From Streptomyces ortus (GTDB lineage: Bacteria > Actinomycetota > Actinomycetes > Streptomycetales > Streptomycetaceae): DNA of 64,000 nucleotides. The number at the start of each line of letters is the position of its first letter. The first letter of the stretch is position 1. The stretch spans positions 942,361 to 1,006,360 of the forward strand of contig NZ_JAIFZO010000002.1 in NCBI RefSeq assembly GCF_026341275.1, given 5' to 3'. Positions 3,248 to 29,113 of this stretch are shown in pieces. Under the pieces are notes generated by a model. It worked only from the letters and a program-made list of their open reading frames with translations. It was not told where the DNA came from and did no database searches. Made by a program: the position numbers and the translations under genes.

Positions 3248-3443
3248 CTAGGGCGCTTCTGATGGATCTCCGCGGCGTCGCGACGCCCGGCACGCTCCCC
3301 CAGCCTCCGGCCGGGGGGACCCCCACTCGCCGCACCGGGCACAGACCCAAGTACGTCCAGTACGCGGGCCTGTGCCCGGCACGACGAGAGCACGCACCGG
3401 ACGCCGCTCCTTCACCCACGGAGATCCATCAGAAACGCCCTAG
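3248..3443. mobile_element. MITE-like palindromic element A, CTAG-bounded, no transposase
   Basis: 196 bp bounded by CTAG at both ends with 25-bp terminal inverted repeats (3248-3272 and 3419-3443, 24 of 25 matching; they start CTAGGGCG(C/T)TTCTGATG). The centre (3332-3382) is an inner hairpin, CCGGGCACAG against CTGTGCCCGG, closing on GTAC-gtcca-GTAC. A C-run/G-run stretch (about 3295-3325) is absent from the related element at 28935-29113. There is no coding capacity. The right CTAG supplies the TAG stop of ppnK (3440-3442). Small non-autonomous elements moved in trans are known in bacteria; that this is one is inference from structure and from the second copy in this window. Confidence 0.7.
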
Positions 3444-4345
3444 TGCGGCGCCCCCCGCCACCCGGCGACCGGCAGCGCGAACTTGGCCACCAGCCGGTCG
3501 GTGAACGACGCGTGGTGCAGCCGCGCCAGCCGCACCGGCACGGCACCGCGCCGGACCTCCACCCGGGCCCCCGGCGGCAGCTCGATCGTCCGCCGCCCGT
3601 CGCACCACAGCACCCCGGGCGGGATGTGCGGCAGGATCTCCACGGCGAGGACCGAGTTCGGCGACGTCACCAGCGGCTTGGCGAACAGGGCGTGCGCGCT
3701 GATGGGCACCATGAGCAGCGCCTCGACCTCCGGCCACACCACGGGACCGCCCGCGGAGAACGCGTACGCCGTGGACCCGGTCGGCGTCGACAGGACGATC
3801 CCGTCGCAGCCGAAGCCGGTCACCGGCCGCCCGTCGATCTCCAGGACCACTTCGAGCAGCTTCTCGGCACCCGCCTTCTGCACAGCGGCCTCGTTGAGCG
3901 CCCAGTCCGTGTGCACGACGTCGCCGTTGCTGTGCACGACGACGTCGACGGTCATCCGCTCCTCGACCTCGTACGCCTTCGTCACCACCCGGTCGACGAC
4001 CTTGTCGAGGTCGTCGCGCTCGGCCTCCGCGAGGAAGCCGACGCGCCCCAGGTTGACGCCGAGCATCGGCACGCCGGAGGCGCGGGCGAACTCGGCGCCG
4101 CGCAGCAGCGTGCCGTCACCGCCGAGGACGATCAGCAGTTCGCATCCGTCGAGGCACTCGGGAGTGGCCTCCTCGACGAGCTCCACGGTCGGCGGCAGCG
4201 GCAGGTCGGCCGCCTCCGCCGCCAGGACGCGTACGCCGAGTCCGGAGCGCAGCAGCCCCTCGACGACGAGCTCGGCACTGCGGATGGCAGCGGGCCGTCC
4301 GGTGTGGGCGAGCAGGAAAACGGTACGAGATCGGGTGTCGGTCAA
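3440..4345 (-). CDS. ppnK: NAD kinase
   Basis: 301 residues. It phosphorylates NAD to NADP. The GGDGT motif lies at residues 75-79 (LIVLGGDGTLL), with the conserved DWALNEAAV segment, and GSTAYAFSAGGP as the second nucleotide-binding motif. Start is TTG 4345 (LTDTRSRTVFLLAHTGRP), preceded by GGAGG at 7 bases and overlapping the tlyA stop as TTGA, so translation is probably coupled. The C-terminus GWRGAPH ends with a TAG that belongs to the terminal repeat of the neighbouring palindromic element, so the last codons may have been trimmed or altered by that insertion. Confidence 0.96.
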   Translation of the reverse strand: MTDTRSRTVFLLAHTGRPAAIRSAELVVEGLLRSGLGVRVLAAEAADLPLPPTVELVEEATPECLDGCELLIVLGGDGTLLRGAEFARASGVPMLGVNLGRVGFLAEAERDDLDKVVDRVVTKAYEVEERMTVDVVVHSNGDVVHTDWALNEAAVQKAGAEKLLEVVLEIDGRPVTGFGCDGIVLSTPTGSTAYAFSAGGPVVWPEVEALLMVPISAHALFAKPLVTSPNSVLAVEILPHIPPGVLWCDGRRTIELPPGARVEVRRGAVPVRLARLHHASFTDRLVAKFALPVAGWRGAPH

Positions 4346-5157
4346 CGCGGCCCCTCCGCCACTGCACGGTCGATGTCGGCCGGGTCCGGTGCGGGTGCCC
4401 CGGCACGCAGCCACAGAAAGTACTCGACGTTCCCCGAGGGCCCGGGCAGCGGACTGGCCGTCACACCCTTCACCCCGAGCCCCAGTTCCCCCGCCCGGCG
4501 GGCCACACCGCGCACGGCGTCCGCCCGCAGCTCGGGGCTGCGGACGACGCCGCCGCTCCCGAGCCGTTCCCTGCCCACCTCGAACTGCGGCTTGACCATC
4601 ATCACCAGGTCGGCACCGGGCGCCGCGCACCGCACGAGGGCGGGCAGCACCAGGCCGAGCGGGATGAAGGACAAATCACCGACCACAAGATCCACCGGCT
4701 CCCCATCGATCGCCTCCAACGTCAACTCGCGTACGTTCGTACGGTCCTTGACGGTGACGCGTTCATCACTTCGGAGAGACCACGCCAACTGGCCGTAGCC
4801 GACGTCCACGGCGAGGACGTGCGAGACGCCCGCGCGCAGCAGCACATCGGTGAACCCGCCGGTCGAGGCTCCGGCGTCCAGCGCCCGCCGCCCCCGGACC
4901 TCAAGACCCAGCGGTACGAAGGCCTCCAGGGCCCCCGCGAGCTTGTGGCCGCCGCGCGAGACGTAGTCCGGGTCGTCGTCGTCCCGGCTGACCAGGATGG
5001 GGGCCGCGGTCTCCACCTGGGTGGCGGGTTTGGTCGCGAGGTTCTTGCCGACGGTGACGCGTCCGGCGGCGATCAGCTGTCCGGCGTGCTCGCGCGAGCG
5101 GGCGAGCTTGCGTCGGACCAGCTCGGCGTCGAGGCGGCGTCGTGCCACTCCTGCCAC
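4342..5157 (-). CDS. tlyA: TlyA-type rRNA 2'-O-methyltransferase
   Basis: 271 residues. An N-terminal S4 RNA-binding domain (RRRLDAELVRRKLARSREHA, residues about 5-65) is followed by an FtsJ-fold SAM methyltransferase (ALDAGASTGGFTDVLLRAG; VVGDLSFIPL; VMMVKPQFEVGRE). TlyA enzymes 2'-O-methylate 16S C1409 and 23S C1920 and confer capreomycin sensitivity; that is family knowledge. Start taken at GTG 5157 (VAGVARRRLDAEL), with AGGAG 11 bases upstream. First of a coupled tlyA-ppnK pair (4-base overlap). Confidence 0.94.
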   Translation of the reverse strand: MAGVARRRLDAELVRRKLARSREHAGQLIAAGRVTVGKNLATKPATQVETAAPILVSRDDDDPDYVSRGGHKLAGALEAFVPLGLEVRGRRALDAGASTGGFTDVLLRAGVSHVLAVDVGYGQLAWSLRSDERVTVKDRTNVRELTLEAIDGEPVDLVVGDLSFIPLGLVLPALVRCAAPGADLVMMVKPQFEVGRERLGSGGVVRSPELRADAVRGVARRAGELGLGVKGVTASPLPGPSGNVEYFLWLRAGAPAPDPADIDRAVAEGPR

Positions 5158-5164
5158 GTTCGGT

Positions 5165-5506
5165 TCAGCTCCTGTTGCTGTTGCTGTGGTCGGTCGGTCC
5201 CGGGGGCGCCGGGGGTCCCGGACGGGCGTCGAGCGCGGTGAGCGTGTCGCGCAGCCCCCGGTGTACATCCTCGTACACCTCGACGTGCCCGTCCGTCGCG
5301 AGGTGGTCCGCGTCGCCCAGCCGGTCGAGCAGGGCGTCGACCCCGTCGTCGCCCGTGGGCGTGCGCGGGACGTGCAGGGGGGCGGGCGCGGCCGGACCGT
5401 ACGCCTCCGTACCGAAGGGTTCCGCGCCGACGGCGCCGACAGCACCGCCGTCACCGCCGGGTTCGGTCCGGGATCCGTCGTCCGGCCCGGTCATGGACTC
5501 GCTCAT
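5165..5506 (-). CDS. Small conserved hypothetical protein
   Basis: 113 residues, ATG 5506, ending 7 bases before tlyA and so probably in its operon. The N-terminal 50 residues are Gly/Ala/Pro/Glu-rich and look disordered. The C-terminal half has a short acidic helical segment (DDGVDALLDRLGDADHLATD) and EVYEDVHRGLRDTLTAL, then a Pro tail. No signal peptide, membrane segment or known catalytic motif. I recognise it only as a type of small protein seen upstream of tlyA in streptomycetes; function unknown. An in-frame second ATG (MTGPDDG) four codons in is an alternative start. Confidence 0.7.
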   Translation of the reverse strand: MSESMTGPDDGSRTEPGGDGGAVGAVGAEPFGTEAYGPAAPAPLHVPRTPTGDDGVDALLDRLGDADHLATDGHVEVYEDVHRGLRDTLTALDARPGPPAPPGPTDHSNSNRS

Positions 5507-5548
5507 GACCCGACGCTACCGCGAAGCGCTGAGGTACCGTCGATCACG

Positions 5549-5896
5549 ATGGCGACGATCGAGGAGTGCCGCAGCGCACTCGACAAACTCTCGGACAACA
5601 TGGCCGGCGCGAACGGCGACGTGCGCAGCGCAGCCGCGTTGGACCGCTCCCTGAGCTGCCGTATCACTGACCTGGACATCACCTTCGTGGGCCGCCTGCA
5701 GGACGGCCGCATCGTGGTGCTCGACACGGTCGAGGGCCCGCCGCCCGAGAAGGCCGAGATCCGGCTCGCGATGACCGGCGACGACCTGCTCGCGATGGTC
5801 GACGGCGAGCTCCACTTCGCGAAGGCCTGGGGCTCGGGCCGCGTCAAGCTCGAAGCGGGCCTGCGCGACCTGATGCGGCTCAGAAAACTGCTCTGA
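5549..5896 (+). CDS. SCP2 sterol-carrier-fold protein
   Basis: 115 residues, ATG 5549, divergent from the tlyA operon with only 42 bases between starts. Small single-domain protein with the SCP2 pattern: FVGRLQDGRIVVLD, then AEIRLAMTGDDLLAMVDGEL and FAKAWGSGRVKLEAGLRDLM. SCP2 folds bind lipids or act as bacterial lipid-binding/accessory domains; ligand unknown. No signal peptide, so cytosolic. Confidence 0.85.
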   Translation: MATIEECRSALDKLSDNMAGANGDVRSAAALDRSLSCRITDLDITFVGRLQDGRIVVLDTVEGPPPEKAEIRLAMTGDDLLAMVDGELHFAKAWGSGRVKLEAGLRDLMRLRKLL

Positions 5897-5917
5897 CCCG
5901 CTCCTCCCCCGGCCCCG

Positions 5918-6772
5918 TCAGCGCTTGCTCACAGCGACGGGCGCGTCAACAGGCGCGACGGCCGTACGGGCCTTCCGCGCGGCCGGCACCACCAGCGGCG
6001 TACCCGTCTCCGGGTCGTCGATGACCTGGCAGCGCAGTCCGAAGACCTCCTCGACCAGTTCCGCCGTGACGATGTCCGCCGGGGCCCCCTCCGCGATCAC
6101 CGCACCGTCGCGCAGCGCGATCAGATGGGTGGCGTAGCGGGCGGCGTGGTTGAGGTCGTGCAGTACGGCCACCAGGGTGCGGCCCTGCTCCTCGTGGAGT
6201 TCGGCACACAGGTCGAGTACGTCGATCTGGTGCTGGATGTCGAGGAAGGTGGTCGGCTCGTCGAGCAGCAGCAGCGGGGTCTGCTGGGCGAGCGCCATGG
6301 CGATCCACACGCGCTGCCGCTGCCCTCCGGAGAGTTCGTCGACATACCGGTCGGCCAGTTCGGCGACACCGGTGGAGGCCATGGACTCGCGGACGATCCG
6401 CTCGTCGTCGGCGGACCACTGGCGCAGCAGCCCCTGGTGCGGGTAGCGGCCACGCCCCACGAGGTCGCCGACGGTGATCCCGTCGGGCGCGACCGACGAC
6501 TGCGGGAGCAGTCCGAGCGTCCTCGCCACCTTCTTCGCGGGCATCGACTGGATGGCGTGGCCGTCGAGCAGCACCCGGCCCTGGCGCGGCTTCAGCATGC
6601 GGGACAGCGCGCGCAGCAGCGTGGACTTGCCGCAGGCGTTGGGGCCGACGATCACCGTGAACGAGTTGTCCGGTATCTCGACCGACAACCGCTCGGCGAT
6701 GACGCGCTGGTCATAGGCGAGGGTGACATCCTCGGCGGACAGGCGGTTCACAGTGCTCCTCAGGTTGTTCAT
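5918..6772 (-). CDS. Iron-siderophore ABC importer, ATPase subunit
   Basis: 284 residues, FepC/FhuC type. Walker A GPNACGKST at 43-51, signature LSGGQRQRVWIAMALA, Walker B LLLLDEPTTFLD, then the switch His in VAVLHDLNHAARYATH. Start ATG 6772 (MNNLRSTVNRL) overlaps the upstream permease stop as ATGA. Third gene of an operon of two FecCD permeases and this ATPase, headed by an iron box at 8940-8957. No substrate-binding lipoprotein is encoded in the operon. The C-terminal 30 residues are an Ala/Val/Arg tail of no known role. Confidence 0.93.
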   Translation of the reverse strand: MNNLRSTVNRLSAEDVTLAYDQRVIAERLSVEIPDNSFTVIVGPNACGKSTLLRALSRMLKPRQGRVLLDGHAIQSMPAKKVARTLGLLPQSSVAPDGITVGDLVGRGRYPHQGLLRQWSADDERIVRESMASTGVAELADRYVDELSGGQRQRVWIAMALAQQTPLLLLDEPTTFLDIQHQIDVLDLCAELHEEQGRTLVAVLHDLNHAARYATHLIALRDGAVIAEGAPADIVTAELVEEVFGLRCQVIDDPETGTPLVVPAARKARTAVAPVDAPVAVSKR

Positions 6773-7899
6773 ATCCGGCCCGCCTTCCGCTCCGTGACCA
6801 GGAGCCACAGGAGATAGACGCCGCCGAGGATTCCGGTCACCACGCCGACGGGCAGCTGGTCGGCCCCGAAGAGCCGCTGGGAGGCCCAGTCCGCGACGAC
6901 CAGGAGCGTGGCGCCCATGCACATCGCGGGCACCAGATTGGGTCCCGGTGAGCGGGTCAGGCGCCGTGCGAGCTGCGGCGCGGTCAGCGCGACGAAGCCG
7001 ACCGGGCCCGCGGCGGCGGTGGCCGACGCGGTGAGCAGCACGGCGGCGACCATCAGGAGCAGCCGCGTCCGCTCCACGCGCACACCGAGCGCGTACGCCA
7101 CGTCGTCGCCCATCTCCAGCATGCGCAGGGCGCGCGCGTTGCCGAGGACCAGCGGGACGAGCACGGCGCACAGGCCGAGCAGGGGCCGGACCTGCTCCCA
7201 GTCGCGGCCGTCGAGGGAGCCGGTCATCCAGACGACCGCGCGGGCCGCGTCGACCAGGTCGGCCTTGGTGATCAGATAGCCGTTGACGGCCGTGACGATC
7301 GCGGAGACCCCGATACCGACCAGGACCAGCCGGTATCCGTGCACGCCCCGCTTCCAGGCGAGCAGATAGATGGCGAATCCGGTCACCAGACCGCCGATCA
7401 GCGCCCCGACGGTGACCTGCCTGGCGGTGCCGGAGAACAGCACGATCATCACGAGCGCGCCCGCCGTCGAGCCCTGCCCGAGGCCGAGCACGTCCGGACT
7501 GCCCAGCGGGTTGCGGGAGATGGCCTGGAAGAGCGCGCCGCCGAGTCCGAGCGAGGCGCCGACCAGGAGCCCTACCAGGACCCGAGGCAGCCGCAGCTCG
7601 TTGACGATGAACTCCTGGCCCGCGTCTCCGTCGCCGAGCAGCGTCCGGACGACGTCGCCGGGGGAGATCGGGAAGTCGCCGGTGCCGATGAGCACGACGC
7701 TCGCGGTGAGCGCGGCCACCAGGAGGAGGGCGACGACCGTGAACGCGCGGACGTCGACACGGACCGACAGCCCGCCGACGGTACGGACCGTACGGCCGCG
7801 GAAGACCCGGGCGGGGGCCGCCGGCGTGATCCCGTGCTCGGTGGCGGCCTCGGTCGCGGTTTCGGGCTCGGTGGCGGTCTGGTTGCGTGGGGCCTTCAC
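6769..7899 (-). CDS. Iron-siderophore ABC importer, FecCD permease (second)
   Basis: 376 residues. The cytoplasmic N-terminal about 55 residues are Thr/Glu/Ala-rich (ATEPETATEAATEHG). The rest is a BtuC/FecD-type permease with about nine to ten membrane segments. Family landmarks are PRVLVGLLVGASLGLGGALF, RNPLGSPDVLGLGQGS, and the C-terminal GPVGFVALTAPQLARRL followed by LPVGVVTGILGGVYLLWLL. Start GTG 7899 (VKAPRNQT) overlaps the stop of the first permease as GTGA. Works with the permease encoded at 7896-8936 as a heterodimeric channel. Confidence 0.93.
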   Translation of the reverse strand: MKAPRNQTATEPETATEAATEHGITPAAPARVFRGRTVRTVGGLSVRVDVRAFTVVALLLVAALTASVVLIGTGDFPISPGDVVRTLLGDGDAGQEFIVNELRLPRVLVGLLVGASLGLGGALFQAISRNPLGSPDVLGLGQGSTAGALVMIVLFSGTARQVTVGALIGGLVTGFAIYLLAWKRGVHGYRLVLVGIGVSAIVTAVNGYLITKADLVDAARAVVWMTGSLDGRDWEQVRPLLGLCAVLVPLVLGNARALRMLEMGDDVAYALGVRVERTRLLLMVAAVLLTASATAAAGPVGFVALTAPQLARRLTRSPGPNLVPAMCMGATLLVVADWASQRLFGADQLPVGVVTGILGGVYLLWLLVTERKAGRI

Positions 7900-8936
7900 A
7901 GCTGTGCCGTCCTCCGCCGTCGTACGAGAAAGATGAAGACCGGGCCGCCGAGGATCGCGGTGACGATGCCGACCTGGAGTTCCGCGGGCCGCGCCACGAC
8001 GCGGCCGATCACGTCGGCGCCGAGCAGCAGCACCGGCGACAGCACGGTGGCGTACGGCAGGATCCAGCGCAGGTCGGGGCCGGTGAAGGACCGCACGACG
8101 TGCGGGACCATCAGCCCCACGAAGACGATCGGCCCGCAGGCGGCGGTCGCGGCCCCGCACAGCACGGTGGCGGCGGCCATGGACAGCGCGCGGGTGCGGC
8201 TCAGATGCGCGCCGAGGGCGCGGGCGGTGTCGTCGCCCATGGCCATGGCGTTCAGCGGCCGGGCGAGGGCCAGCGCCAGGACCGTACCGGCCGCGAGGAA
8301 CGGCAGCACCTGCCAGATGATGTCGCCGGTCGCCGAGGCCAGCGAACCGACCGTCCAGAAGCGCATCTTGCCGAGCGCCGCCTCGTCCGTGATCATCACG
8401 GCCTGGAGATAGCCGTAGAGCGCGGCGCTGATCGCGGTGCCGGCGAGGGCGAGCCGCACCGGCGTCGCGCCCCGGCCGCCGCCGAGGAAGAACACGAGCA
8501 CTCCGACCAGCGCCGCGCCCGCGAAGGCGAACCACACGTAGCCGTTCAGCGAGGTGACGCCGAAGAAGGTGATCGCCGTGACGACCGCGGCGGACGCGCC
8601 CGCGTTGATGCCGAGCAGCCCGGGGTCGGCGAGCGGGTTGCGGGTGAGCGCCTGGAGCACGGCTCCGGCGAGCCCGAGCGCGGCGCCGACGAGCAGCCCG
8701 AGGACCGTACGCGACAGCCGCTCCCCCACCACGACGTCGCCGTACGTACCGGAGTCCGCGAACAGGCCGTGCCACACCTGCTCCGGGGACAGCTCTTTCG
8801 CGCCGATGGCGATGCTCGCCACGGCGACGAGCGCCAGCACGACGAGGGACAGGAGAAGCCCGGCGGCTCGGACCGCCCGGCGCCTGGGGGGCGCGGGGGC
8901 GGTCGCGCTCTGTTCGGGGGGACTGTCGACCAACAC
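7896..8936 (-). CDS. Iron-siderophore ABC importer, FecCD permease (first)
   Basis: 346 residues. After about 25 residues it is a standard FecCD permease: RTVLGLLVGAALGLAGAVLQ, RNPLADPGLLGINAGAS, then GPIVFVGLMVPHVVRSF and LQVGIVTAILGGPVFIFLV. First gene of the importer operon. Start GTG 8936 has no Shine-Dalgarno sequence: the iron-box palindrome 8940-8957 ends only three bases before it. Either the mRNA is leaderless or repressor binding covers the transcription start. Expected control: repression by a DtxR/IdeR-family regulator (DmdR in Streptomyces) when iron is plentiful. Confidence 0.93.
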   Translation of the reverse strand: MLVDSPPEQSATAPAPPRRRAVRAAGLLLSLVVLALVAVASIAIGAKELSPEQVWHGLFADSGTYGDVVVGERLSRTVLGLLVGAALGLAGAVLQALTRNPLADPGLLGINAGASAAVVTAITFFGVTSLNGYVWFAFAGAALVGVLVFFLGGGRGATPVRLALAGTAISAALYGYLQAVMITDEAALGKMRFWTVGSLASATGDIIWQVLPFLAAGTVLALALARPLNAMAMGDDTARALGAHLSRTRALSMAAATVLCGAATAACGPIVFVGLMVPHVVRSFTGPDLRWILPYATVLSPVLLLGADVIGRVVARPAELQVGIVTAILGGPVFIFLVRRRRTAQL

Positions 8937-8939
8937 GGC

Positions 8940-8957
8940 AGTTAGGTTAACCTAACT
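8940..8957. promoter_or_regulatory. Iron box (DtxR/IdeR/DmdR operator)
   Basis: Perfect 18-bp palindrome AGTTAGGTT|AACCTAACT. Its TTAGGTTA...CCTAA core matches the known DtxR/IdeR/DmdR operator. It sits directly upstream of the permease-permease-ATPase operon (start 8936), so iron repression of that operon is strongly implied. Confidence 0.9.
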
Positions 8958-9076
8958 TGCGGTGGCGCTTCGCTCGGCGGTCCCGGTGATCAGGCCAGAC
9001 AAGCCCGAGCGGGCCGGTGCGGGCTTGCGCGGGTCGGCATGTCCTTGCGCGGGCCGTACGTGCCTGTGCGCGCCCC

Positions 9077-10105
9077 TCAGAGCCCCAGCCGGGCCAGCGC
9101 CTTGCCCCCGTCCAGCTCGCACGCCGCGTCGCCGCCCGCCGTCCAGGCCGCGGCACACAGCGCCCTCAGCCCGTCCATGGGCTCGCCCTCACCGTCCAGT
9201 TCCAGCCTCTCGCCGCCCGCCGTGGCCGTGTAACCCCCGCACCGGAAGCCGTCACCGTCCTCGACCACCTCGGGCTGCCCGGTCAGCATGCCCCGCAGAT
9301 CGGCGTCCACATAGGTCGGCCGGTGCTGCGGCGGCGCGGCGAGGAGCTGCGCACCGTCGGTCACCCCGGTCAGTACGAGCAGCGAATCCACCTCGCCGTT
9401 GAACGCGCCCTCGATGTCCGTGTCGAGCCGGTCCCCGACCACCAGCGGTCGCTTCGCCCCGGTCCGCAGGATCGTCTCCCGGTGCATCGGGGGCAGCGGC
9501 TTGCCCGCCACCTGCGGCTCGGCACCCGTGGCGATCCGGACGACCTCCACGGCCGCGCCGTTGCCCGGGGCGATGCCGCGGGCGCCGGGGATCGTCAGAT
9601 CGGTGTTGGACGCGAACCACGGCACCCCGCGCGCGATGGCGTAGCAGGCCTCGGCGAAGCGCCCCCACGGCAGGTCGGGGCCGCCGAATCCCTGCACGAC
9701 GGCCGCCGGGTCGTCGTCGGCCGACTCGACCGGCTCCAGACCGCGCTCGCGCAGCGCGACCCGCAGTCCCTCCCCGCCGACCACCAGCACGCGCGCGCCC
9801 TGGGGCAGCTGCTCGCTCATCAGGCGGGCCACGGCCTGGGCCGAGGTGATGACGTCCGACGCCTCGGTCGCCATGCCCAGCTCGGTGAGGTGCTCCGCGA
9901 CATGGTCGGGCGTGCGCAGCGCGTTGTTCGTGACGTACGCGAGGCGCATCCCGCCCTTGTGGGCCGTGCCGAGCGACTCCACCGCGTGCGCGATCGCGTT
10001 GCCACCCGCGTACACCACGCCGTCCAGGTCGAGCAGCGCCGTGTCGTACGCCTGGCTCAGGGCCGTGTCACTGCCCTCGGGCCGCGTCCTGGCGGTCTGG
10101 CTCAT
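9077..10105 (-). CDS. HAD-superfamily hydrolase (subclass IIA, NagD/PGP-like)
   Basis: 342 residues. Motif I is DTALLDLDGVVYAGG near residue 22, motif II VTNNALRTPDHVAEHL, then a C2-type cap with VVGGEGLRVALRERGL. Motif III Lys/IV are PQVAGKPLPPMHRE and VVGDRLDTDIEGAFNG. This is the NagD/p-nitrophenyl-phosphatase class; physiological substrate unknown (phosphoglycolate or nucleotides possible). Start ATG 10105 (MSQTARTRPEG), with GAGGAG 9 bases upstream; a longer GTG/ATG frame to 10144 lacks a site. Divergent from the DUF1015 gene across 72 bases. Confidence 0.92.
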   Translation of the reverse strand: MSQTARTRPEGSDTALSQAYDTALLDLDGVVYAGGNAIAHAVESLGTAHKGGMRLAYVTNNALRTPDHVAEHLTELGMATEASDVITSAQAVARLMSEQLPQGARVLVVGGEGLRVALRERGLEPVESADDDPAAVVQGFGGPDLPWGRFAEACYAIARGVPWFASNTDLTIPGARGIAPGNGAAVEVVRIATGAEPQVAGKPLPPMHRETILRTGAKRPLVVGDRLDTDIEGAFNGEVDSLLVLTGVTDGAQLLAAPPQHRPTYVDADLRGMLTGQPEVVEDGDGFRCGGYTATAGGERLELDGEGEPMDGLRALCAAAWTAGGDAACELDGGKALARLGL

Positions 10106-10177
10106 TACGCATCGCTCCTCGTTCGGTCTCTTTCCCCCGATCATCGCTCATGGCACTGACACACTTACGATGCATCA

Positions 10178-11476: not shown

Positions 11477-11486
11477 AAAACACGAA

Positions 11487-13870: not shown

Positions 13871-13989
13871 GTTCGGCGGCGTCCTACTCTCCCACAGGGT
13901 CCCCCCTGCAGTACCATCGGCGCTGTAAGGCTTAGCTTCCGGGTTCGGAATGTAACCGGGCGTTTCCCTCACGCTATGACCACCGAAAC
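13871..13989 (-). rRNA. rrf: 5S ribosomal RNA
   Basis: 119 bases, recognised from the 5' GTTTCGGTGGTCATAGCG and 3' GTAGGACGCCGCCGAAC ends, which pair as helix I, and the internal CCGAACCCGGAAGCTAAG. Last gene of the operon; the ends are accurate to a few bases. Confidence 0.96.
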
Positions 13990-14096
13990 CCTTTCAGACA
14001 CTCCGCCAGAGGCAGAGCTGTGAACGGGCAGCGAACTAGCACACTATTTAATTGACTAGTGGAACTGTTCAGCCAGCACAACCGTTCGTTGTCTGG

Positions 14097-14123
14097 GAAC
14101 TACACAGTGGACGCGAGCAACTG
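14097..14123 (-). other. 23S processing stem, 3' arm
   Basis: Complementary to 17247-17273: 26 of 27 positions pair when one G-U is counted, with a single U-U mismatch. This is the long-range duplex normally cut by RNase III to release pre-23S rRNA. The rest of the 23S-5S spacer (13990-14096) holds no gene. Confidence 0.85.
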
Positions 14124-19090
<4,967 letters not shown>

Positions 19091-19560
19091 AATGTTTACC
19101 GGTAATCCGGTTCACATCATGAGAGCGGAACGACCAACCGGAATAAGGAAGGCCGTTCACAGCGTCCTCGCTGATGCGCCTGCCGTGCTTGCGCCCGGCA
19201 GGACTTTTTCAAAGGAACCTCCACCCACCACCCTGCGGTGATGGACGGGGTATCAACATATCTGGCGTTGATTTTTGGCACGCTGTTGAGTTCTCAAGGA
19301 ACGGACGCTTCCTTTGTACTCACCCTCTCGGGCTTTCCTCCGGGCTTTTCCCTTCGGTCTTGCGTTTCCGACTCTATCAGACCGTTTCCGGCTCCGATTC
19401 CCAGTCGGTGGGCTTTGCCTATTGGCCTTGCGGCCTTTCGACATTCACTACGTTAGCCGATCCCCTCGGCAACTCATAATCGAGTCCCGCGAGTTCGAAT
19501 TCAGGCATACGGACACGCTGAATCGACCCTCGCTGAGAGGAAGTCGTAGGTAGTGGGTTG
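19091..19560 (-). promoter_or_regulatory. rRNA operon promoter and leader region
   Basis: 470 bases without a gene, upstream of 16S. The leader carries TTGAGAACTCAAC (19286-19302, minus strand) followed by GCGTGCCAAAAATCAACGCC, the conserved antitermination/processing block of streptomycete rRNA leaders. A TAGAGT -10-like hexamer (19371-19376) lies upstream of it. Streptomyces rrn operons usually have several tandem promoters; I can point to this one only, and its -35 (AATCGG) is poor. Confidence 0.6.
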
Positions 19561-21908: not shown

Positions 21909-21924
21909 CCTTTCACTGAGTGTT

Positions 21925-21970
21925 TTGCCCGTCCCTGGTCTTGGAATTGATCAGGGGCGGGCATTTTTAT
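21925..21970 (+). terminator. Intrinsic terminator after the PEBP gene
   Basis: TGCCCG-t-CCCTG (21925-21936) pairs with CAGGG-g-CGGGCA (21951-21962) and is followed by TTTTTATT, a canonical hairpin plus U-tract. Confidence 0.85.
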
Positions 21971-22053
21971 TGCGTTGTCCATCTCGACGTGCCCGGCCAG
22001 AGTTGATCCACGCCCGCCAGGTGGTGGGCCGGTGCACATGGGAGGTGGGCTGG

Positions 22054-22557: not shown

Positions 22558-22574
22558 TCGCTCCGACTGAGGGG

Positions 22575-22705
22575 GGTGCGGGGCGTTGTCGGGTGCGGGT
22601 CCGCTGTGGCTGGCTGCGCAGTTCCCCGCGCCCCTAGGGGGTTCAGCCCCTCTGGCGTTTGAGGAGCGGGGGGTCGGGGCGGAGCCCCTGAGCCCCCCGC
22701 TACGT
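22575..22705. repeat. Dispersed streptomycete intergenic repeat
   Basis: GC-rich block with CGCAGTTCCCCGCGCCCCT, CAGCCCCTCTGGCGTTTGAG and GGGGCGGAGCCCC. I recall these phrases as scattered many times between streptomycete genes. A related GTTCCCCGCGCCCCTT forms the stem at 48339-48382. It lies between convergent genes and contains short inverted repeats, so it may also stop transcription. Confidence 0.65.
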
Positions 22706-22716
22706 GGCTGAGCGGG

Positions 22717-23652
22717 TCAGTCCACTGACGGCTTTTCTCGGCGTTCCGTGCCGCCGCCGCCCTGGTTGCCGCCGCCCATCGGCCCGAAGTTGCCCATCGC
22801 GCCGCTCAGACCCTTGAGCGCGTCGCCGATCTCGCTCGGCACGATCCAGAGCTTGTTCGCGTCGCCCTCGGCGATCTTCGGCAGCATCTGGAGGTACTGG
22901 TAGGCCAGCAGCTTCTGGTCCGCGTCACCGGCGTGGATGGACTCGAAGACCGTACGGATCGCCTGGGCCTCGCCCTCGGCGCGCAGCGCGGCGGCCCTGG
23001 CCTCACCCTCTGCACGCAGGATGGCCGACTGCTTCTCACCCTCGGCGGTGAGGATCTGCGACTGGCGGATACCTTCCGCGGTGAGGATCGCGGCGCGCTT
23101 GTCGCGGTCCGCGCGCATCTGCTTCTCCATCGAGTCCTGGATGGAGGTGGGCGGCTCGATCGCCTTGAGCTCGACGCGGTTGACGCGGATGCCCCACTTG
23201 CCGGTGGCTTCGTCGAGGACTCCGCGCAGGGCCGCGTTGATCTCCTCGCGGGAGGTCAGGGTCCGCTCCAGGTCCATGCCGCCGATGATGTTGCGGAGCG
23301 TGGTGACGGTGAGCTGCTCGATCGCCTGGATGTAGCTGGCGACCTCGTAGGTCGCGGCGCGGGCGTCCGTCACCTGGTAGTAGATGACGGTGTCGATGTT
23401 CACGACCAGGTTGTCCTGGGTGATCACCGGCTGGGGCGGGAACGGCACGACCTGCTCGCGGAGGTCGATGCGGTTGCGGATCGAGTCGATGAACGGGACG
23501 ACGATGTTCAGGCCCGCGTTGAGAGTGCGCGTGTAACGGCCGAACCGCTCGACGATCGCGGCGCTGGCCTGGGGAATGACTTGGATGGTCTTGATCAACG
23601 CGATGAAGACCAACACCACCAGAATGATCAGGACGATGATGATCGGTTCCAT
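22717..23652 (-). CDS. SPFH/Band-7 membrane protein (paraslipin type)
   Basis: 311 residues, ATG 23652 with GGGGAG 5 bases upstream. One N-terminal membrane segment (IIIVLIILVVLVFIALI, residues 4-20), then the Band-7 domain: QASAAIVERFGRYTRTLNAG, PVITQDNLVVNIDTVIYYQV, and ERTLTSREEINAALRGVLDE. A coiled-coil EGEARAAALRAEGEAQ stretch and a Gly-rich tail (GPMGGGNQGGGG) follow. It scaffolds membrane domains and usually partners an NfeD protein, here encoded 200 bases upstream on the same strand. Confidence 0.94.
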   Translation of the reverse strand: MEPIIIVLIILVVLVFIALIKTIQVIPQASAAIVERFGRYTRTLNAGLNIVVPFIDSIRNRIDLREQVVPFPPQPVITQDNLVVNIDTVIYYQVTDARAATYEVASYIQAIEQLTVTTLRNIIGGMDLERTLTSREEINAALRGVLDEATGKWGIRVNRVELKAIEPPTSIQDSMEKQMRADRDKRAAILTAEGIRQSQILTAEGEKQSAILRAEGEARAAALRAEGEAQAIRTVFESIHAGDADQKLLAYQYLQMLPKIAEGDANKLWIVPSEIGDALKGLSGAMGNFGPMGGGNQGGGGTERREKPSVD

Positions 23653-23855
23653 CGTGGCTCCCCGTACCCTTCTCCGCCTCGGTGCTTCCGGAAATCCTGT
23701 GACTGCCGAAGATCTGCTGACTGTCGAAGATCTTGCTGGACGAGTGTGACAGACCACAACTCGCCACGTGCGACGTTCCGTTCACTGGACGTCTTGGACG
23801 CCTCGGGTGCCTCGGGTGCCTCGGTGGCCTCGGGTGCGTCGGGTGCGTCGGGTCG

Positions 23856-24287
23856 TCACACGATGATCGCCGTGGCTCCTTCGATCTCCACCACATCCAC
23901 TTCCTGGCCCACGTCGTAGGCGCGGGTGGTGTCGAGGGAGCGTGCGGACCAGATCTCTCCCGCGAGTTTGATCCGGCCTCCCGAACCGTCCACCTTCTCC
24001 AGGACGACGGCTTGCCTGCCCTTCAACGCGTCGATTCCCGTAGCCAGTTCAGGTCGCTGCGCACGGTGCCGGGCCGCGACGGGCCGTACCACCGCGATGA
24101 GGGCGACGGAGACGGCGGCGAAGACGACGACCTGGACGACGACACCGCCTCCGAACCCCGCGGTCACGGCGCCCGCGACGGCGCCGACGGCGAGCATGCC
24201 GAATTCCGGCATCGCGGTCACGACCAACGGGATTCCGAGCCCGGCCGCGCCGATCAGCCACCACACCCAAGCGTCGATGTCGTTCAC
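23856..24287 (-). CDS. NfeD-like membrane protein
   Basis: 143 residues. Three to four membrane helices in residues 5-70 (WWLIGAAGLGIPLVVTAMP; VVVQVVVFAAVSVALIAVV), then the OB-fold NfeD domain (GRQAVVLEKVDGSGGRIKLA; VGQEVDVVEIEGATAIIV). Partner of the SPFH protein at 22717-23652. Start GTG 24287 has no good ribosome site. The 200 bases between its stop and the SPFH start hold a degenerate CCTCGGGTG repeat (about 23800-23856) and no gene. Confidence 0.92.
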   Translation of the reverse strand: MNDIDAWVWWLIGAAGLGIPLVVTAMPEFGMLAVGAVAGAVTAGFGGGVVVQVVVFAAVSVALIAVVRPVAARHRAQRPELATGIDALKGRQAVVLEKVDGSGGRIKLAGEIWSARSLDTTRAYDVGQEVDVVEIEGATAIIV

Positions 24288-24401
24288 ACGGTCATGGTAA
24301 GTCCGCAGGTCCCGTCCCCGACAGGGCGCCGATCCGGTTGGGGCGGGTGTTCCCGGTTGTCGTAGGAGGTTTGTCAGGACAAGTCCGCCGGCCCGGGCCC
24401 G

Positions 24402-25193
<792 letters not shown>

Positions 25194-25327
25194 GAGCGCG
25201 CTGTCTCCCATTGCAGTCTCGGCCGTCGCTGACGTCTGTGGACGCAGCCCCCAGGGAAAACCTACGCCACCGGTCGACCCGTCCAATCCATCGGCCGGTC
25301 CTTAAGCGGTTCCTTAAAGTGGGAGGC

Positions 25328-26116
25328 ATGCTTTCGGAACCACGTTCAGGACGGTTGGCGGCATGGGGAAACGCACTGTTGGCCGGATTTGTCTCACCGG
25401 ATGACGCGGTCGTCGCCATCGTCGGGGAGGACGCCGTGCACCGGGTCGCGGGGCTGCCCGGCGAGACGGCGCCCGTCGGGCTCTCGCTCGCCCTGGGGCG
25501 GCTGCGCACGCTCGGGGCGACCGGGCTGCGGGTCGCGCTGCCCGCGCCCGGGCATCCCCTCGGGCTGAGCGGCCCGCCGGACTTCAACGCGCGCGCGTTG
25601 GAGGCCGAGGAGGCCGTCGTCTGTCAGGGGGTCGGTCTCGGCCTCGTACCCGAGGTGTACGAGGCCGGGCCCGACGGCGATGTGCATGTGGAGGTCGTCT
25701 GGCACTGTCTGCCGGTGCGCGAGGGGCCGCCCGCCGATGTGCCGTCCCTCGGGGAGGCGGAGCGGGAGCTCGCGGAGGCGCTGCGGGACGCGACCGAGGT
25801 GCTGTCGCGGCTCGACGTGGCGGGGTCGGGGCCGGTCGCCGAGGCGGCGATCGACGCGTACCGGGCGCGGGCCGAGCGGGACGGCGAGGTGCTCGCTCCC
25901 GGTTATCCGCCCCGGGCGGTGCGGGTGCTGGCGCTGTCCCGGCGGGTCGGGCTGCTGGTCTCGGTGGCGCACGGCAACGGGTCCGGTGGGGCTGTGAGCG
26001 CGTCGGAGATGGCCGCGCGCTCCGAGGCGCTGCGGCCGGTCGAACGGACGGCCAGGCGGGCTCAGGTGGCGGCGTACAACGCGTTCGTGGAGGAGCGGGA
26101 GCGCGGGGTGCGCTGA
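25328..26116 (+). CDS. Conserved actinobacterial hypothetical protein
   Basis: 262 residues, ATG 25328 with GGGAGG just upstream. Recognisable blocks are GRLAAWGNALLAGFVSPDDA, LGRLRTLGATGLRVALPAPG, and RVGLLVSVAHGNGSGGAVS. No signal, membrane or metal motif. Divergent from the ABC ATPase (134-base gap). I do not recognise the family and make no functional claim. Confidence 0.8.
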   Translation: MLSEPRSGRLAAWGNALLAGFVSPDDAVVAIVGEDAVHRVAGLPGETAPVGLSLALGRLRTLGATGLRVALPAPGHPLGLSGPPDFNARALEAEEAVVCQGVGLGLVPEVYEAGPDGDVHVEVVWHCLPVREGPPADVPSLGEAERELAEALRDATEVLSRLDVAGSGPVAEAAIDAYRARAERDGEVLAPGYPPRAVRVLALSRRVGLLVSVAHGNGSGGAVSASEMAARSEALRPVERTARRAQVAAYNAFVEERERGVR

Positions 26117-26170
26117 GGGTCGCGGAGGCCCCGGTTGAGGCGCCGGTCGACGAAGGCCACCGGCACGGCC

Positions 26171-26206
26171 GAGGGCCCCGCGGACCGTGTGGTCCGCGGG
26201 GCCCTC
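26171..26206. terminator. Bidirectional terminator hairpin
   Basis: 16-bp perfect stem GAGGGCCCCGCGGACC / GGTCCGCGGGGCCCTC with loop GTGT. It lies between the convergent stops at 26116 and 26222. Confidence 0.8.
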
Positions 26207-26221
26207 AGGGCGGTCGGGGCG

Positions 26222-26461
26222 TCAGTCGTTGACAGCCTCGTTGCCGAAGGTCGGGTTCAGGAGCCCGATCACGTTGATGCTGTCACCGACGACGTTGACG
26301 GGGACGTGGATCGGCGCCTGGACCGCGTTGCCCGAGGCGACGCCCGGGGACTTCACGGCAGCGGCGTCGGCGTCCGAGTCGGCGACAGCCGCACCGGCCG
26401 AGGCACCCGCTGCGATACCGGCGACGGTGACGGCCAGTGCGGCCTTCTTGGCGATGTTCAT
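26222..26461 (-). CDS. Short chaplin lacking cysteines (ChpE-like)
   Basis: 79 residues, ATG 26461, AGGAGG 10 bases upstream. Signal peptide about 1-27 (MNIAKKAALAVTVAGIAAGA...AVA). One chaplin domain follows: SPGVASGNAVQAPIHVPVNV, then NVIGLLNPTFGN. Chaplins are secreted amyloid surfactants that coat aerial hyphae. Most carry two conserved Cys; here both positions are non-Cys (VVGDS; NEAVN), as in S. coelicolor ChpE. Second of two adjacent paralogues, with its own terminator. Confidence 0.92.
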   Translation of the reverse strand: MNIAKKAALAVTVAGIAAGASAGAAVADSDADAAAVKSPGVASGNAVQAPIHVPVNVVGDSINVIGLLNPTFGNEAVND

Positions 26462-26591
26462 GAAAAGCGTTCCTCCTGCGATTGCGTATCCGGCCCTGCC
26501 GCGGGCCGTAGCCTGAGAAACGTCCGAGGGGCGCGGACGGCACGGTGGCCGGGCGCGTTCTGCCCGTTCGGGCCAGTGGTCCGACGAGCCG

Positions 26592-26631
26592 AAAAACGGA
26601 CCGGCCTCCCAGGCGAACCTGGGAGGCCGGT
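26592..26631 (-). terminator. Intrinsic terminator between the two chaplins
   Basis: 14-bp stem ACCGGCCTCCCAGG / CCTGGGAGGCCGGT (26600-26613 and 26618-26631, 4-base loop). In the minus direction it is followed by CCG and TTTTT (26592-26596). It makes the two chaplin genes separately terminated. Confidence 0.85.
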
Positions 26632-26654
26632 GGTCATGTGACCCGGGGCGTACG

Positions 26655-26900
26655 TCAGCCGTTGAAGCCGTCGTTGCCGAACGCCGGGTTCAGGATGCCG
26701 ATGACGTTCACGGTGTTGCCGACCGCGTTCACCGGGATGGCGACCGGGACCTGGACGAGGTTGCCCGAGGCGACACCCGGCGAGCCCACGGCCTGACCGG
26801 CGGCGTGCGCACCGTCGGTGGCGGAGGCGAAACCGGCACCGGCGGCAACGAGGCCACCGGCCACCATCGTGACGGCAGCGGCCTTCTTCAGGTTCTTCAC
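26655..26900 (-). CDS. Short chaplin lacking cysteines (ChpE-like), upstream copy
   Basis: 81 residues from GTG 26900 (VKNLKKAAAVTMVAG) with GGAGAGG 8 bases upstream. Signal peptide about 1-25, cleavage near FASA-TDG. The chaplin core is SPGVASGNLVQVPVAIPVNA, then NVIGILNPAFGN. Both cysteine positions are replaced (NAVGN; NDGFN). Close paralogue of the gene at 26222-26461 and most likely a tandem duplicate; which copy corresponds to chpE of S. coelicolor cannot be settled here. Confidence 0.9.
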   Translation of the reverse strand: MKNLKKAAAVTMVAGGLVAAGAGFASATDGAHAAGQAVGSPGVASGNLVQVPVAIPVNAVGNTVNVIGILNPAFGNDGFNG

Positions 26901-27083
26901 TTCTGAGCCCTCTCCTTGCGAACCACTGCGGCAGAGCGCCGCAGCACGCACTGAAGAACGGCGGCGGCCGGCGAAGGATGCGCCATCCGGGGGACATTCC
27001 CACGACGGTATGAATCTCAGTCCGGAGGCAGGCCCTCCGAATTGCCGTCCCCCGGACCGGCCGTTGCGCGTATCAGCAGGTCA

Positions 27084-27725
27084 TCAGCCCGTCACACCGT
27101 GGCGTACGGCCCACAGCGCGGCCTGGGTGCGGTCGGAGAGGTCGAGCTTCATCAGAATGTTCGATACGTGCGTCTTGACGGTCTTCTCGGAGAGGACGAG
27201 GGCGCGGGCTATCTCGCGGTTGGAGCGGCCGTCGGCGATCAGGCCGAGCACCTCGCGCTCCCGCTCCGTGAGCGAACTCCCTCTTCCCTGGCTGTAGTTG
27301 ACGCCCTCCTGGGACAGCAGCGCGTCGGCCACCTCGGACTGCAGCAGGATGTGCCCGGCGTGAACCGAGCGGATGGCCCCGGCGAGCGCGTCCGGGTCCA
27401 CGTCCTTGTAGACATAGCCCGCGGCGCCCGCGCGCAGGGCCGGGATCACCGTGCGCTGCTCGGTGAAGCTGGTGACGACGAGCACGCGCGCGGGGTTGTC
27501 CAGTTCGCGGAGCCTGCGCAGGGCCTCGACGCCGTCCATGCCCGGCATCTTGACGTCCATGAGGACGACGTCGGGCTTCAACTCCTCGGCGCGGGCGACT
27601 CCTTCGGCGCCGTCGGACGCCTCCCCCACGACCTCGATGTCTTCCTGCACCTCAAGGAAGGTGCGCAGCCCTCGGCGGACGACCTGGTGGTCGTCGACGA
27701 GCAGCACCTTGATCGCGTCAGCCAC
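27084..27725 (-). CDS. NarL/FixJ-type response regulator
   Basis: 213 residues, GTG 27725, GGAGG 6 bases upstream. Receiver domain: VLLVDDHQVVRRGL, phospho-acceptor D57 in DVVLMDVKMPGMDG, T/K residues in VVTSF and YVYKD. LuxR-type helix-turn-helix at about 150-210 (SLTEREREVLGLIADGRSNR; EKTVKTHVSNILMKL). Its start lies inside the kinase gene (8-base overlap), so the two are co-translated. Target genes unknown; neighbouring chaplins are an obvious but untested candidate. Confidence 0.94.
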   Translation of the reverse strand: MADAIKVLLVDDHQVVRRGLRTFLEVQEDIEVVGEASDGAEGVARAEELKPDVVLMDVKMPGMDGVEALRRLRELDNPARVLVVTSFTEQRTVIPALRAGAAGYVYKDVDPDALAGAIRSVHAGHILLQSEVADALLSQEGVNYSQGRGSSLTEREREVLGLIADGRSNREIARALVLSEKTVKTHVSNILMKLDLSDRTQAALWAVRHGVTG

Positions 27726-28863
27726 CAGGAACCTCCATCTCGATCGTGGTGCCCTTGCCCGGCGCTGATGCGACGGTGAGCTCGCCGCCGACGCCGTTGG
27801 TCCGGTCGCGCATGGAGACCAGGCCGAGATGGCGTCCCGCGCGGCGGGTCGCGCTCGGCTCGAAGCCCCTGCCGTCGTCCGTGACGCGCAGGACGGCGCC
27901 CGGACCGCGCTTCTCCACGGTGACGTCGACGCGGGCCGCGCCCGAGTGCCGCAGCGCGTTGTGCAGCGCCTCCTGGGCGACCCGCAGCATGGCCTCCTCC
28001 TGGGCGGCGGGCAGCGCGCGGACGCCGCGGCTGTCGAAGGTCACGCGCGCGGAGTGGGCCCGGTCGAGGACCTGTGTCTGGGTGCGCAACGTGGCGACCA
28101 GGCCGTCCTCGTCGAGGGCGGCGGGGCGCAACTCGACGACGGCGGCGCGCAGTTCGTCGGCCGCCTCGGCGGCGAGGGCGGCCACCTGCTGGAGTTCGCC
28201 CTTGGCGCGGTCCGGGTCGCGGTCCACCAGGGCCGCGGCGGCCTGGGCGGTCAGGCGCAGGGAGAACAGCTTCTGGCTGACGGCGTCGTGCAGTTCGTGG
28301 GCGATGCGGGAGCGTTCCTCGGCGATGGTCAGCTCACGGCTGCGCTCGTACAGCCGGGCGTTCGTGAGGGCGATCGCGGCGTGCTGGGCGAGGATCCCGA
28401 GCACGTCCTCGTCGTCCTCGGTGAAACCGCAGCCGCCCGTCGGCCGTGCGCAGTTCTTGTTGGCCAGGAAGAGTGCGCCGAGGACCTCGTCGCCGTCGCG
28501 GATGGGCAGGCCGAGGAAGTCGGACATGTCGGGGTGGGCGGCGGGCCAGCCCTCGAAGCGCGGGTCCTCGCGGACGTCGGCGAGGCGCTCCGGGCGGGCC
28601 TGGTGCAGCATCGCGGCGAGGATGCCGTGCTGGCGCGGGAGCGGGCCGATGGCCTTCCACTGGGCATCGCTGACACCATCGACGACGAACTGGGCGAAGC
28701 CGCCGTGGTCGTCGGGGACCCCCAGGGCCGCGTACTGCGCGTCGAGCAGTTCGCGGGCGGAGGCGACGATCGTCTTGAGGACGTCGCGCACCTCGAGATG
28801 CCTGCTCATGGCCAGCAGCGCGGTGCTCACCGCGAGCAGGCCCGACCGGGGTCCTTGACTCAT
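27718..28863 (-). CDS. Soluble GAF-domain sensor histidine kinase
   Basis: 381 residues, ATG 28863 (MSQGPRSGLLAV). Residues 1-175 form a GAF sensor domain (ELLDAQYAALGV; FLGLPIRDGDEVLGALFLAN). HisKA_3 dimerisation box SRIAHELHDAVSQKLF has the His near 192. The ATPase has N-box AQEALHNALRHSGA and G-box TDDGRGFEP. No membrane segment, so it senses a cytoplasmic signal; GAF cysteines (C138, C145) could bind a ligand or redox cofactor. Phosphorylates the overlapping regulator at 27084-27725. Confidence 0.93.
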   Translation of the reverse strand: MSQGPRSGLLAVSTALLAMSRHLEVRDVLKTIVASARELLDAQYAALGVPDDHGGFAQFVVDGVSDAQWKAIGPLPRQHGILAAMLHQARPERLADVREDPRFEGWPAAHPDMSDFLGLPIRDGDEVLGALFLANKNCARPTGGCGFTEDDEDVLGILAQHAAIALTNARLYERSRELTIAEERSRIAHELHDAVSQKLFSLRLTAQAAAALVDRDPDRAKGELQQVAALAAEAADELRAAVVELRPAALDEDGLVATLRTQTQVLDRAHSARVTFDSRGVRALPAAQEEAMLRVAQEALHNALRHSGAARVDVTVEKRGPGAVLRVTDDGRGFEPSATRRAGRHLGLVSMRDRTNGVGGELTVASAPGKGTTIEMEVPGG

Positions 28864-28934
28864 GACCTCACGGTACCGGCGGGGTGCGACAGCCGGATCC
28901 GGCCTGTGGACGGGCCGCTCATGGGCCGCTGGAC

Positions 28935-29113
28935 CTAGGGTCTGTCTGACAATTCCCGTCTGCCGCGCGACGCCATGCACGCACTCTCGCCGCACCGGGC
29001 GCAGAGCCAAGTACGTCCAGTACGAGGCTCTACGCCCGGCACACCGAGAGCACGCACCTGACGCCGCGCAGCCGCCCTACGGGCGACGACGGGAATTGTC
29101 AGACAGACCCTAG
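28935..29113. mobile_element. MITE-like palindromic element B, CTAG-bounded, no transposase
   Basis: 179 bp bounded by CTAG, with perfect 26-bp terminal inverted repeats (28935-28960 and 29088-29113; begin CTAGGGTCTGTCTGAC). The whole element is one imperfect palindrome centred near 29017. Its core (28992-29042) is about 85% identical to the core of element A at 3332-3382, and two base pairs of the stem differ by compensatory changes. The termini differ from element A. It lies between the divergent kinase and SDR genes, 71 bases upstream of the kinase start, so it may affect their promoters. Confidence 0.75.

What the first reader, a model, noticed from the sequence alone, without database searches (positions are those of the whole stretch)
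3248..29113. Two transposase-less palindromic elements: different ends, same covarying core hairpin
Elements at 3248-3443 and 28935-29113 are both CTAG-bounded long palindromes with no coding capacity. Their terminal inverted repeats differ (25 bp, 24 matching, beginning CTAGGGCG; 26 bp perfect, beginning CTAGGGTCTG), but the 51-bp cores (3332-3382, 28992-29042) are about 85% identical. In the core stem one A-T pair is G-C in the other copy and one C-G pair is G-C: two compensatory double changes. One further mismatch in A is repaired in B. The hairpin itself therefore seems selected. A shared core carrying two kinds of ends suggests a structured passenger mobilised by two transposases, or a structured DNA/RNA element with exchangeable termini.
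Basis: partly seen in the sequence, partly recalled or inferred. Interest (0 to 1): 0.78.

Follow-up and report, generated by a model that had tools for sequence, protein, structure and literature searches.

The report
Mobile RNA-folding core with swappable ends
Two short gene-less repeats in this Streptomyces-like genome belong to a family found in about seven of ten genomes sampled from its genus, in which one conserved core is framed by end sequences that resemble those of different jumping genes; those jumping genes likely move it, and the core is predicted to work as a long folded RNA made from one strand only.

Summary
A (3248-3443) and B (28935-29113) have 4 and 12 near-identical full copies in the genome. 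A covariance model of the core hits 287 of 392 same-genus genomes and 206 of 293 in the order, 6 of 9 genera. Among 153 elements with recognisable ends I distinguish eight end classes; identical or nearly identical 91-nt cores carry different ends. Class I, III and VII ends resemble both ends of IS5-family ISs, class VI ends those of IS630-family ISs. Both window elements have IS5-like ends; IS630-like ends occur in relatives. Arm mismatches are A.C, not G.T (104:10 over 84 distinct stems), so the opposite strand forms an almost continuous helix with G.U wobbles: 91% of cells pair against 73%, and 139 of 142 elements fold better on that strand. Strand-neutral DNA processes would not give this. 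Best reading: MITE-like elements likely moved by IS5/IS630 transposases, carrying a conserved, strand-specific structured-RNA passenger with exchangeable ends. Movement by those enzymes, transcription and RNA function are inferred.

The parts
3248..3443 (.). Element A, class VII ends, 196 bp, no coding capacity
   Evidence: (4 full copies in own genome)
3248..3272 (+). A left terminal inverted repeat with CTAG
   Evidence: 20 of 24 bases as in the ends of 1.0-kb IS5-family ISs such as L261 (hand count)
3419..3443 (-). A right terminal inverted repeat; its CTAG (3440-3443) holds the TAG stop of the NAD kinase gene on the - strand
3296..3325 (.). Extra C/G-rich hairpin beside the core of A, where B has 3 bases
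   Evidence: alignment; partial matches elsewhere in own genome
3326..3388 (-). Conserved core of A; the better-folding strand is the - strand
28935..29113 (.). Element B, class I ends, 179 bp, no coding capacity
   Evidence: (12 near-identical full copies)
28935..28960 (+). B left terminal inverted repeat, 26 bp perfect
   Evidence: 20 of 23 bases as in the end of the IS5-family IS L258 (hand count)
29088..29113 (-). B right terminal inverted repeat
28970..28973 (+). Conserved ACGC facing ACGC (29061-29064): becomes G.U, C-G, G-C, U.G on the - strand
28978..28983 (+). Conserved CACGCA facing CACGCA (29051-29056): two tandem U.G/G.U steps on the - strand
28984..29050 (-). Core stem-loop of B, with apical GTAC-GTCCA-GTAC at 29011-29023
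29073..29085 (.). Side hairpin of the predicted three-way junction in B

Best explanation
A and B belong to a widespread family of short (mostly 165-220 bp) non-coding elements of Streptomyces and relatives, in which one conserved core sits between terminal repeats that resemble those of either IS5-family or IS630-family insertion sequences; the elements are likely moved in trans by such transposases, and the core is likely kept because the strand opposite to the one drawn is predicted to fold as a long RNA hairpin. Shown by sequence: the repeated copies, the end classes, IS elements with similar ends, identical cores with different ends, CTAG borders that often are a gene's TAG stop, compensatory changes, and the one-sided mismatch pattern. 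Inferred: each IS transposase binds the ends and pastes the element at the TA of CTAG; a core passes from one end type to another by recombination in the shared core followed by copying of one arm onto the other; when a transcript reads the folding strand, about 80 pairs form with G.U wobbles at fixed places, giving a double-stranded RNA that a protein such as RNase III could recognise or cut, so that an insertion at a stop codon is tolerated. Encoding wobbles keeps the RNA helix continuous while the DNA palindrome stays interrupted, which would reduce DNA-level instability.
For: Spread: 287 of 392 genus genomes, 206 of 293 in the order, 6 of 9 genera. Recent mobility: near-identical copies at sites with different flanks. 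End exchange: 100% identical 91-nt cores in L145 (class VI) and L186 (V), L031 (II) and L093 (I), L104 (V) and L194 (IV, same genome); L136 (III) and L137 (VI) differ at one position; a hybrid with a class II left and class VII right end, L214. IS partners: IS5 for class I (L253, L258), III (L256, L257) and VII (L261-L263, IS5 by annotation); IS630 for class VI (L217, L221 at both ends; L220 with a weaker second end; L218 second end not found). Covariation. Strand: A.C 104 to G.T 10 over 84 distinct stems, 57 stems against 4, where base composition predicts 1.8:1; in the end repeats 56 to 12 (anchored) or 100 to 32 (with flanking pairs); 139 of 142 fold better on the - strand, median difference -36 kcal/mol with RNA parameters. 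Stop codon at a border: 47 of 144 sites. In five copies at the dxr locus the arms changed together in place.
Against: No transcript, transposition or binding was tested. IS ends are similar, not identical (20 of 24 bases for A, 20 of 23 for B; hand counts). In the own genome no two ends of type A or B (up to 3 mismatches) face each other at IS length; none in the listed rows either, but that list was cut and covers four of six genomes. Of 20 stretches fetched round single ends, 15 had no second end by the script's rule and 5 had one within about 240 bases; none at IS length. Class I IS partners come from Arthrobacter and Kocuria plasmids. No IS was identified for class II (queried) or V and VIII (not queried); for IV only one end beside an IS5 transposase. 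Orientation towards the gene whose stop is hit is neutral (27 against 23), so host read-through would make the folding RNA in about half of copies. The same strand also folds better with DNA parameters (139 of 142), so energy does not separate RNA from single-stranded DNA. In the outermost arm parts the unanchored alignment gave a weaker asymmetry, A.C 80 to G.T 45. Copies were found by likeness to B's core, which inflates apparent conservation; the structures counted were drawn from these sequences.
Confidence: 0.6

Rival explanations
1. Ordinary MITEs: internally deleted IS derivatives that share a core by descent and recombination, whose arms stay complementary because inverted repeats are corrected against each other by template switching; no RNA function.
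For: Deletion derivatives and a hybrid occur (L016, L022, L023; L214); at dxr the left border may have been copied from the right one (inference); IS partners exist.
Against: Template switching and transposase binding treat the two strands alike, but mismatches are A.C ten times as often as G.T over distinct stems, and six checked positions are A.C in 62-76 of 78-81 distinct inner haplotypes. Ordinary MITEs keep their ends and lose their middle (general knowledge); here the middle is kept while the ends differ.
Confidence: 0.22
2. The strand folds as single-stranded DNA, not RNA, and serves a DNA process such as recognition by a hairpin-specific transposase or recombinase, or priming in replication.
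For: The - strand is also the better folder with DNA parameters (139 of 142); the strand preference does not follow host gene orientation; copies are oriented relative to the chromosome middle (72 against 27).
Against: If the origin is central, as assumed, that bias puts the foldable strand away from the lagging-strand template, where single-stranded DNA is most exposed. Conserved tandem U.G/G.U steps suit RNA. DDE transposases are not known to need a folded strand (general knowledge).
Confidence: 0.15
3. A host-selected bidirectional terminator or mRNA 3'-end structure spread by transposition to gene ends.
For: 47 of 144 sites lie at a gene's stop codon; both strands fold far better than shuffles.
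Against: CTAG is rare, so the stop-codon sites may simply follow from the target sequence; a terminator would need neither one strand nor exact internal motifs; several copies lie in open frames or leaders.
Confidence: 0.08

Closest known systems
[quoted passage not shown]
   Same: Short, non-coding, terminal inverted repeats, dispersed copies, autonomous ISs with similar ends exist, transcripts predicted to fold (review PMC10969869, outline and passages seen)
   Different: Usually one MITE family goes with one IS and its interior is arbitrary (general knowledge); here the interior is conserved across a genus and the ends resemble ISs of two transposase families, with a strand-specific fold
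Correia elements / NEMIS of Neisseria (RNase III cutting from a review passage in PMC10969869; other details recalled)
   Same: Palindromic short mobile repeats whose transcripts are cut by RNase III
   Different: No conserved core under interchangeable ends is known to me; relation by sequence not tested
Rickettsia palindromic elements (recalled; search listing only)
   Same: Palindromic short repeats found in frame inside proteins, as L043 appears to be here
   Different: Here many copies sit at stop codons, and ends resemble IS ends
REP/BIME sequences and RAYT transposases (recalled; search listing only)
   Same: Hairpins with strand-specific recognition
   Different: Here the ends are 20-30 bp inverted repeats at CTAG; HUH transposases were not searched for

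Membership tests
MITE | short, no coding capacity, terminal inverted repeats | tested here: met
MITE | multiple dispersed near-identical copies | tested here: met
MITE | ends shared with an autonomous IS | tested here: met
   similar ends: class I, III and VII with IS5, class VI with IS630; none identified for II, V, VIII; none in the own genome for A and B ends
MITE | target-site duplication | tested here: inconclusive
   CTAG on both sides in 56 of 144 sites, 38 with no recognised border; CTAG is palindromic and no clean empty/filled pair was found; the dxr site looks rearranged
IS5 family (partner ISs of A and B ends) | IS5-type transposase between matching ends | tested here: met
   NF033580 above its cut-off for L253 first ORF, L256 and L255; L258 109.2 against cut-off 110, L253 second ORF 91.2; L261-L263 by annotation only
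IS630 family (partner ISs of class VI ends) | IS630-type transposase between matching ends | tested here: met
   NF033545 148 bits, cut-off 100, for L221; ends
Structured RNA family of Rfam 15 | match at the gathering score | tested here: not met
   window: only rRNA matches; seven loci with elements: five matches up to E 1, all far below their gathering scores, best a microRNA family at 37.9 bits against 95
Structured non-coding RNA in general | covariation above controls and strand-specific wobble pairing | tested here: met
Structured non-coding RNA in general | stable transcript in cells | not testable with these tools
   no RNA-seq at hand

The most novel reading that the evidence does not exclude
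A mobile structured RNA that is a passenger, not a by-product: one RNA fold, conserved in a bacterial genus and its relatives, has repeatedly taken new transposon ends from at least two unrelated DDE transposase families (IS5 and IS630), writes G.U wobbles at fixed positions so that its 80-pair RNA helix is continuous while its DNA palindrome is not, and is domesticated in places as a leader or protein segment.
Probability: 0.4. Interest if true: 0.85.

Novelty: new variant of a known kind. Interest (0 to 1): 0.72.

Why it matters
MITEs are normally seen as dead IS remnants defined by their ends. Here the conserved unit is the interior, it keeps a strand-specific RNA-type fold in most sampled species of a genus, and it changes ends. 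If true, it is a portable RNA module that outlives the transposons that carry it, and it gives a testable way to find its function in Streptomyces, where about a third of examined copies touch a gene's stop codon. The A.C/G.T strand test is also a cheap way to tell single-strand (RNA-type) selection from DNA palindromes in any repeat family. The listings of ten searches of an open-access full-text library show no description of these elements; of papers I saw only those listings and passages of two. Subscription papers and ISfinder could not be searched.

Tried and rejected
Autonomous copies with the same ends in the own genome: no facing pair at IS length at up to 3 mismatches. Six other genomes: none in the listed rows, which were cut and cover four of the six. 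Twenty stretches round single ends: 15 without a second end by the script's rule, 5 (L206, L210, L211, L212, L215) with one within about 240 bases; the script printed the distances wrongly and I recalculated them by hand. A 1385-bp stretch with class VII ends and an IS630 transposase (L238) was first taken for the parent; it is a class VII element with another IS630 nested in its tip. IS630 ends: of 30 loci from 14 genomes, 11 gave no TA-flanked repeat and, L238 apart, the rest matched no class.

Rfam: nothing at threshold. Phages: no match. Empty sites: joined flanks of five loci against 41 genomes; most listed matches stop near the junction, two rows cross it (query 1-165 and 1095-1380) and were not followed, so target duplication stays open.

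Terminator function from orientation: not supported, 27 against 23. Core tree and end classes: 37 changes against 61-70 in 30 label shuffles, so classes are also partly inherited; the tree rests on short cores and is weak, and I rely on identical cores instead. Chromosome orientation rests on an assumed central origin, on rounded genome sizes for some, and on positions typed by hand from cut listings (G027 and G313 were not entered); it weakens from p 7e-6 to 5e-3 as the centre is excluded. The one pattern scan of named genomes had a spacer one base too long and found 2 stretches. A first dxr alignment was wrong for several rows; one search replaces it for five loci, a sixth (L281) failed its filter.

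Rows dropped: the model alignment A1 left out ten loci by name and any copy with the extra hairpin, element A among them; L057-L086 were skipped in the element hunt; 50 of 139 unique elements with gapped arms were left out; elements with unclear ends were left out; L009 was left out of A2.
Full report
WHAT IS THERE. The window lies in a 9.29-Mb genome. The named plasmids with the core are of Streptomyces and Embleya, so I treat the host as Streptomyces-like; its name was not given. Element A (3248-3443) lies between a NAD kinase gene (3440-4630, - strand) and a RecN/SMC-type gene (1391-3211, - strand); its right CTAG holds the NAD kinase stop. Element B (28935-29113) lies between a GAF/histidine kinase gene read to the left (Pfam hits on 27721-28860) and a short-chain dehydrogenase gene read to the right from 29226. 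A has 4 full copies in the genome at 99-100% identity and B 12 at 98-100%, plus damaged ones. Flanks differ, and 13 of these 16 full copies have CTAG on both sides. Short remnants with the same ends and no core occur too (L016, L022, L023).

HOW WIDE. The 77-bp core of B as plain DNA hits 96 of 199 genus genomes. A covariance model R1 made from 30 copies hits 287 of 392 genus genomes and 206 of 293 genomes of the order. The six genera with matches are the own one, three others of the same family and two of another family, the last two with weaker E-values (1e-10 to 1e-4). Plasmids: 16 records have some match to B, 15 Streptomyces and one Embleya; six cover at least 80% of it. Phages: none.

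MANY ENDS, ONE CORE. A script found 154 elements in fetched loci; 153 have a recognisable inverted repeat at the ends. Classes I-V are loosely alike (GGNNNTGT start); VI and VII are not. Pairs with identical 91-nt cores and different ends: L145/L186 (VI/V, ends 46% alike), L031/L093 (II/I), L104/L194 (V/IV, one genome); L136/L137 (III/VI) differ at one position. L214 joins a class II left end to a class VII right end. So ends do get exchanged; the route by recombination plus arm copying is my inference.

WHOSE ENDS. A 31-base class VI query meets annotated IS630 transposases in Streptomyces and Rhodococcus plasmids. L217 and L221 show inverted ends of about 30 bp bounded by CTAG (1506 and 1237 bp), L220 a weaker second end, and for L218 no second end was found; the L221 protein scores 148 bits on NF033545. 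Class VII: L261-L263, 1011-1014 bp with 24-25 bp inverted ends and a gene annotated as IS5 family transposase; I did not scan that protein because my coordinates failed. Class I: L253 (Arthrobacter) and L258 (Kocuria), 947 bp. Class III: L256, L257, 893-894 bp (the L256 protein). Class IV: L255, one end beside an IS5 transposase, other end not found. The likeness is partial: 20 of 24 bases for A against L261, 20 of 23 for B against L258 (hand counts). Of the hits only a few were opened. Published work on the IS630 relative ISY100 shows insertion into TA with TA duplication (PMC2170065, abstract and passages seen); its reference list names IS630 preference for TA in CTAG (title seen only).

THE FOLD AND ITS STRAND. 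In 30 copies, the drawn strand supports 36 pairs in four helices, 14 with double changes, none of 500 shuffles as high; the structure was drawn by me from these sequences, so the sliding control leans towards it. Between the helices lie nearly invariant stretches on both arms: ACGC/ACGC, CACGCA/CACGCA, CCGCA/CACGC. Written as pairs these are mostly A.C mismatches, which on the opposite strand are G.U wobbles. Treating all 53 positions as one helix, 72.7% of 1588 cells pair on the drawn strand (30 rows) and 91.2% of 1537 on the other (29 rows), covariation score 0.109 against 0.185. Over whole arms of 139 unique elements A.C is 1182 and G.T 131, much of it from the fixed positions. The asymmetry holds where sequence varies: over 84 distinct core stems A.C 104, G.T 10; 57 stems have more A.C, 4 more G.T; composition would give 1.8 to 1. 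By end class it is 8:1, 41:3, 10:1, 2:1, 6:0, 15:0, 4:0 and 5:0 for I to VIII, so class IV says little. In the end repeats it is 56 to 12 over 86 distinct pairs, 100 to 32 with flanking pairs, and 80 to 45 in the unanchored outer arms. Of 142 distinct elements 139 fold better on the - strand, median difference -36 kcal/mol (RNA) and -17 (DNA parameters). Part of that follows from its G+U-richer make-up: shuffles also fold better on that strand; the z-scores still differ, for B -17.7 on - and -13.9 on +, for A -14.4 and -10.1. For B and the class I, II and VIII copies printed, the predicted shape is a three-way junction: end stem, small side hairpin, long core stem; classes VI and VII lack that side hairpin in the alignment.

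Transposase binding and arm copying are strand-neutral, so I take this as the mark of a folded single strand. RNA is favoured over single-stranded DNA by wobble tolerance and by the chromosome orientation (72 against 27 copies in 32 genomes, origin assumed central), but this is not settled.

WHERE IT SITS. In 47 of 144 sites a border TAG is the stop codon of a gene-like reading frame; drawn orientation relative to that gene is 27 against 23, three sites counting on both sides (gene calls are by frame length and codon composition only). The border is CCAG...CTGG in 10 sites and CGAG...CTCG in 3, complementary on the two sides, against 9 mixed with CTAG; several of these lie in open frames, for example L043 within a 1024-codon frame and the dxr leader or N-terminus in L033, L040 and L107. 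In a search of 150 genomes with the dxr stretch, 4 listed rows cover the element together with dxr, and most other listed dxr rows begin at or beyond its edge. In five aligned dxr copies at one position, one end pair reads C-G, G-C or A-T, changing on both sides. That shows upkeep in place, by selection or by arm copying.

VERDICT. MITE-like by form, but a variant: conserved structured interior, changing ends that resemble two transposase families, strand-specific fold. Functional steps are inferred.

Noticed in passing
window 3296-3325; also L036, L054, L207, L208: A C/G-rich hairpin sits at the same joint of the core in A and in other species' copies; parts of A's version match other places of the genome, so it may be a separate repeat that uses this joint.
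   Followed up: partly
L006, L011, L012, L015, L019 (own genome): A further end type, reading roughly AGGGCTGTCCCGTAACTCCCGG, lies directly beside these copies: nested or tandem insertions of small elements.
   Followed up: no
L238: An IS630-family IS sits nested in the tip of a class VII element, keeping the element's arms on both sides.
   Followed up: partly
99 copies in 32 genomes with large contigs: Copies are oriented relative to the chromosome middle, 72 against 27.
   Followed up: partly
window, 22 sites: CTAG is about four times rarer than expected (22 against 84); 10 of the 22 lie in the rRNA operon stretch 13871-19092 and 4 are the borders of A and B.
   Followed up: no
L043: A copy lies in frame, with over 480 codons open on each side, in a long high-GC3 reading frame.
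   Followed up: no
L033, L107, L278 (same locus as L040), L279, L280: A copy is fixed at the start of dxr in several species and keeps its pairing there.
   Followed up: partly
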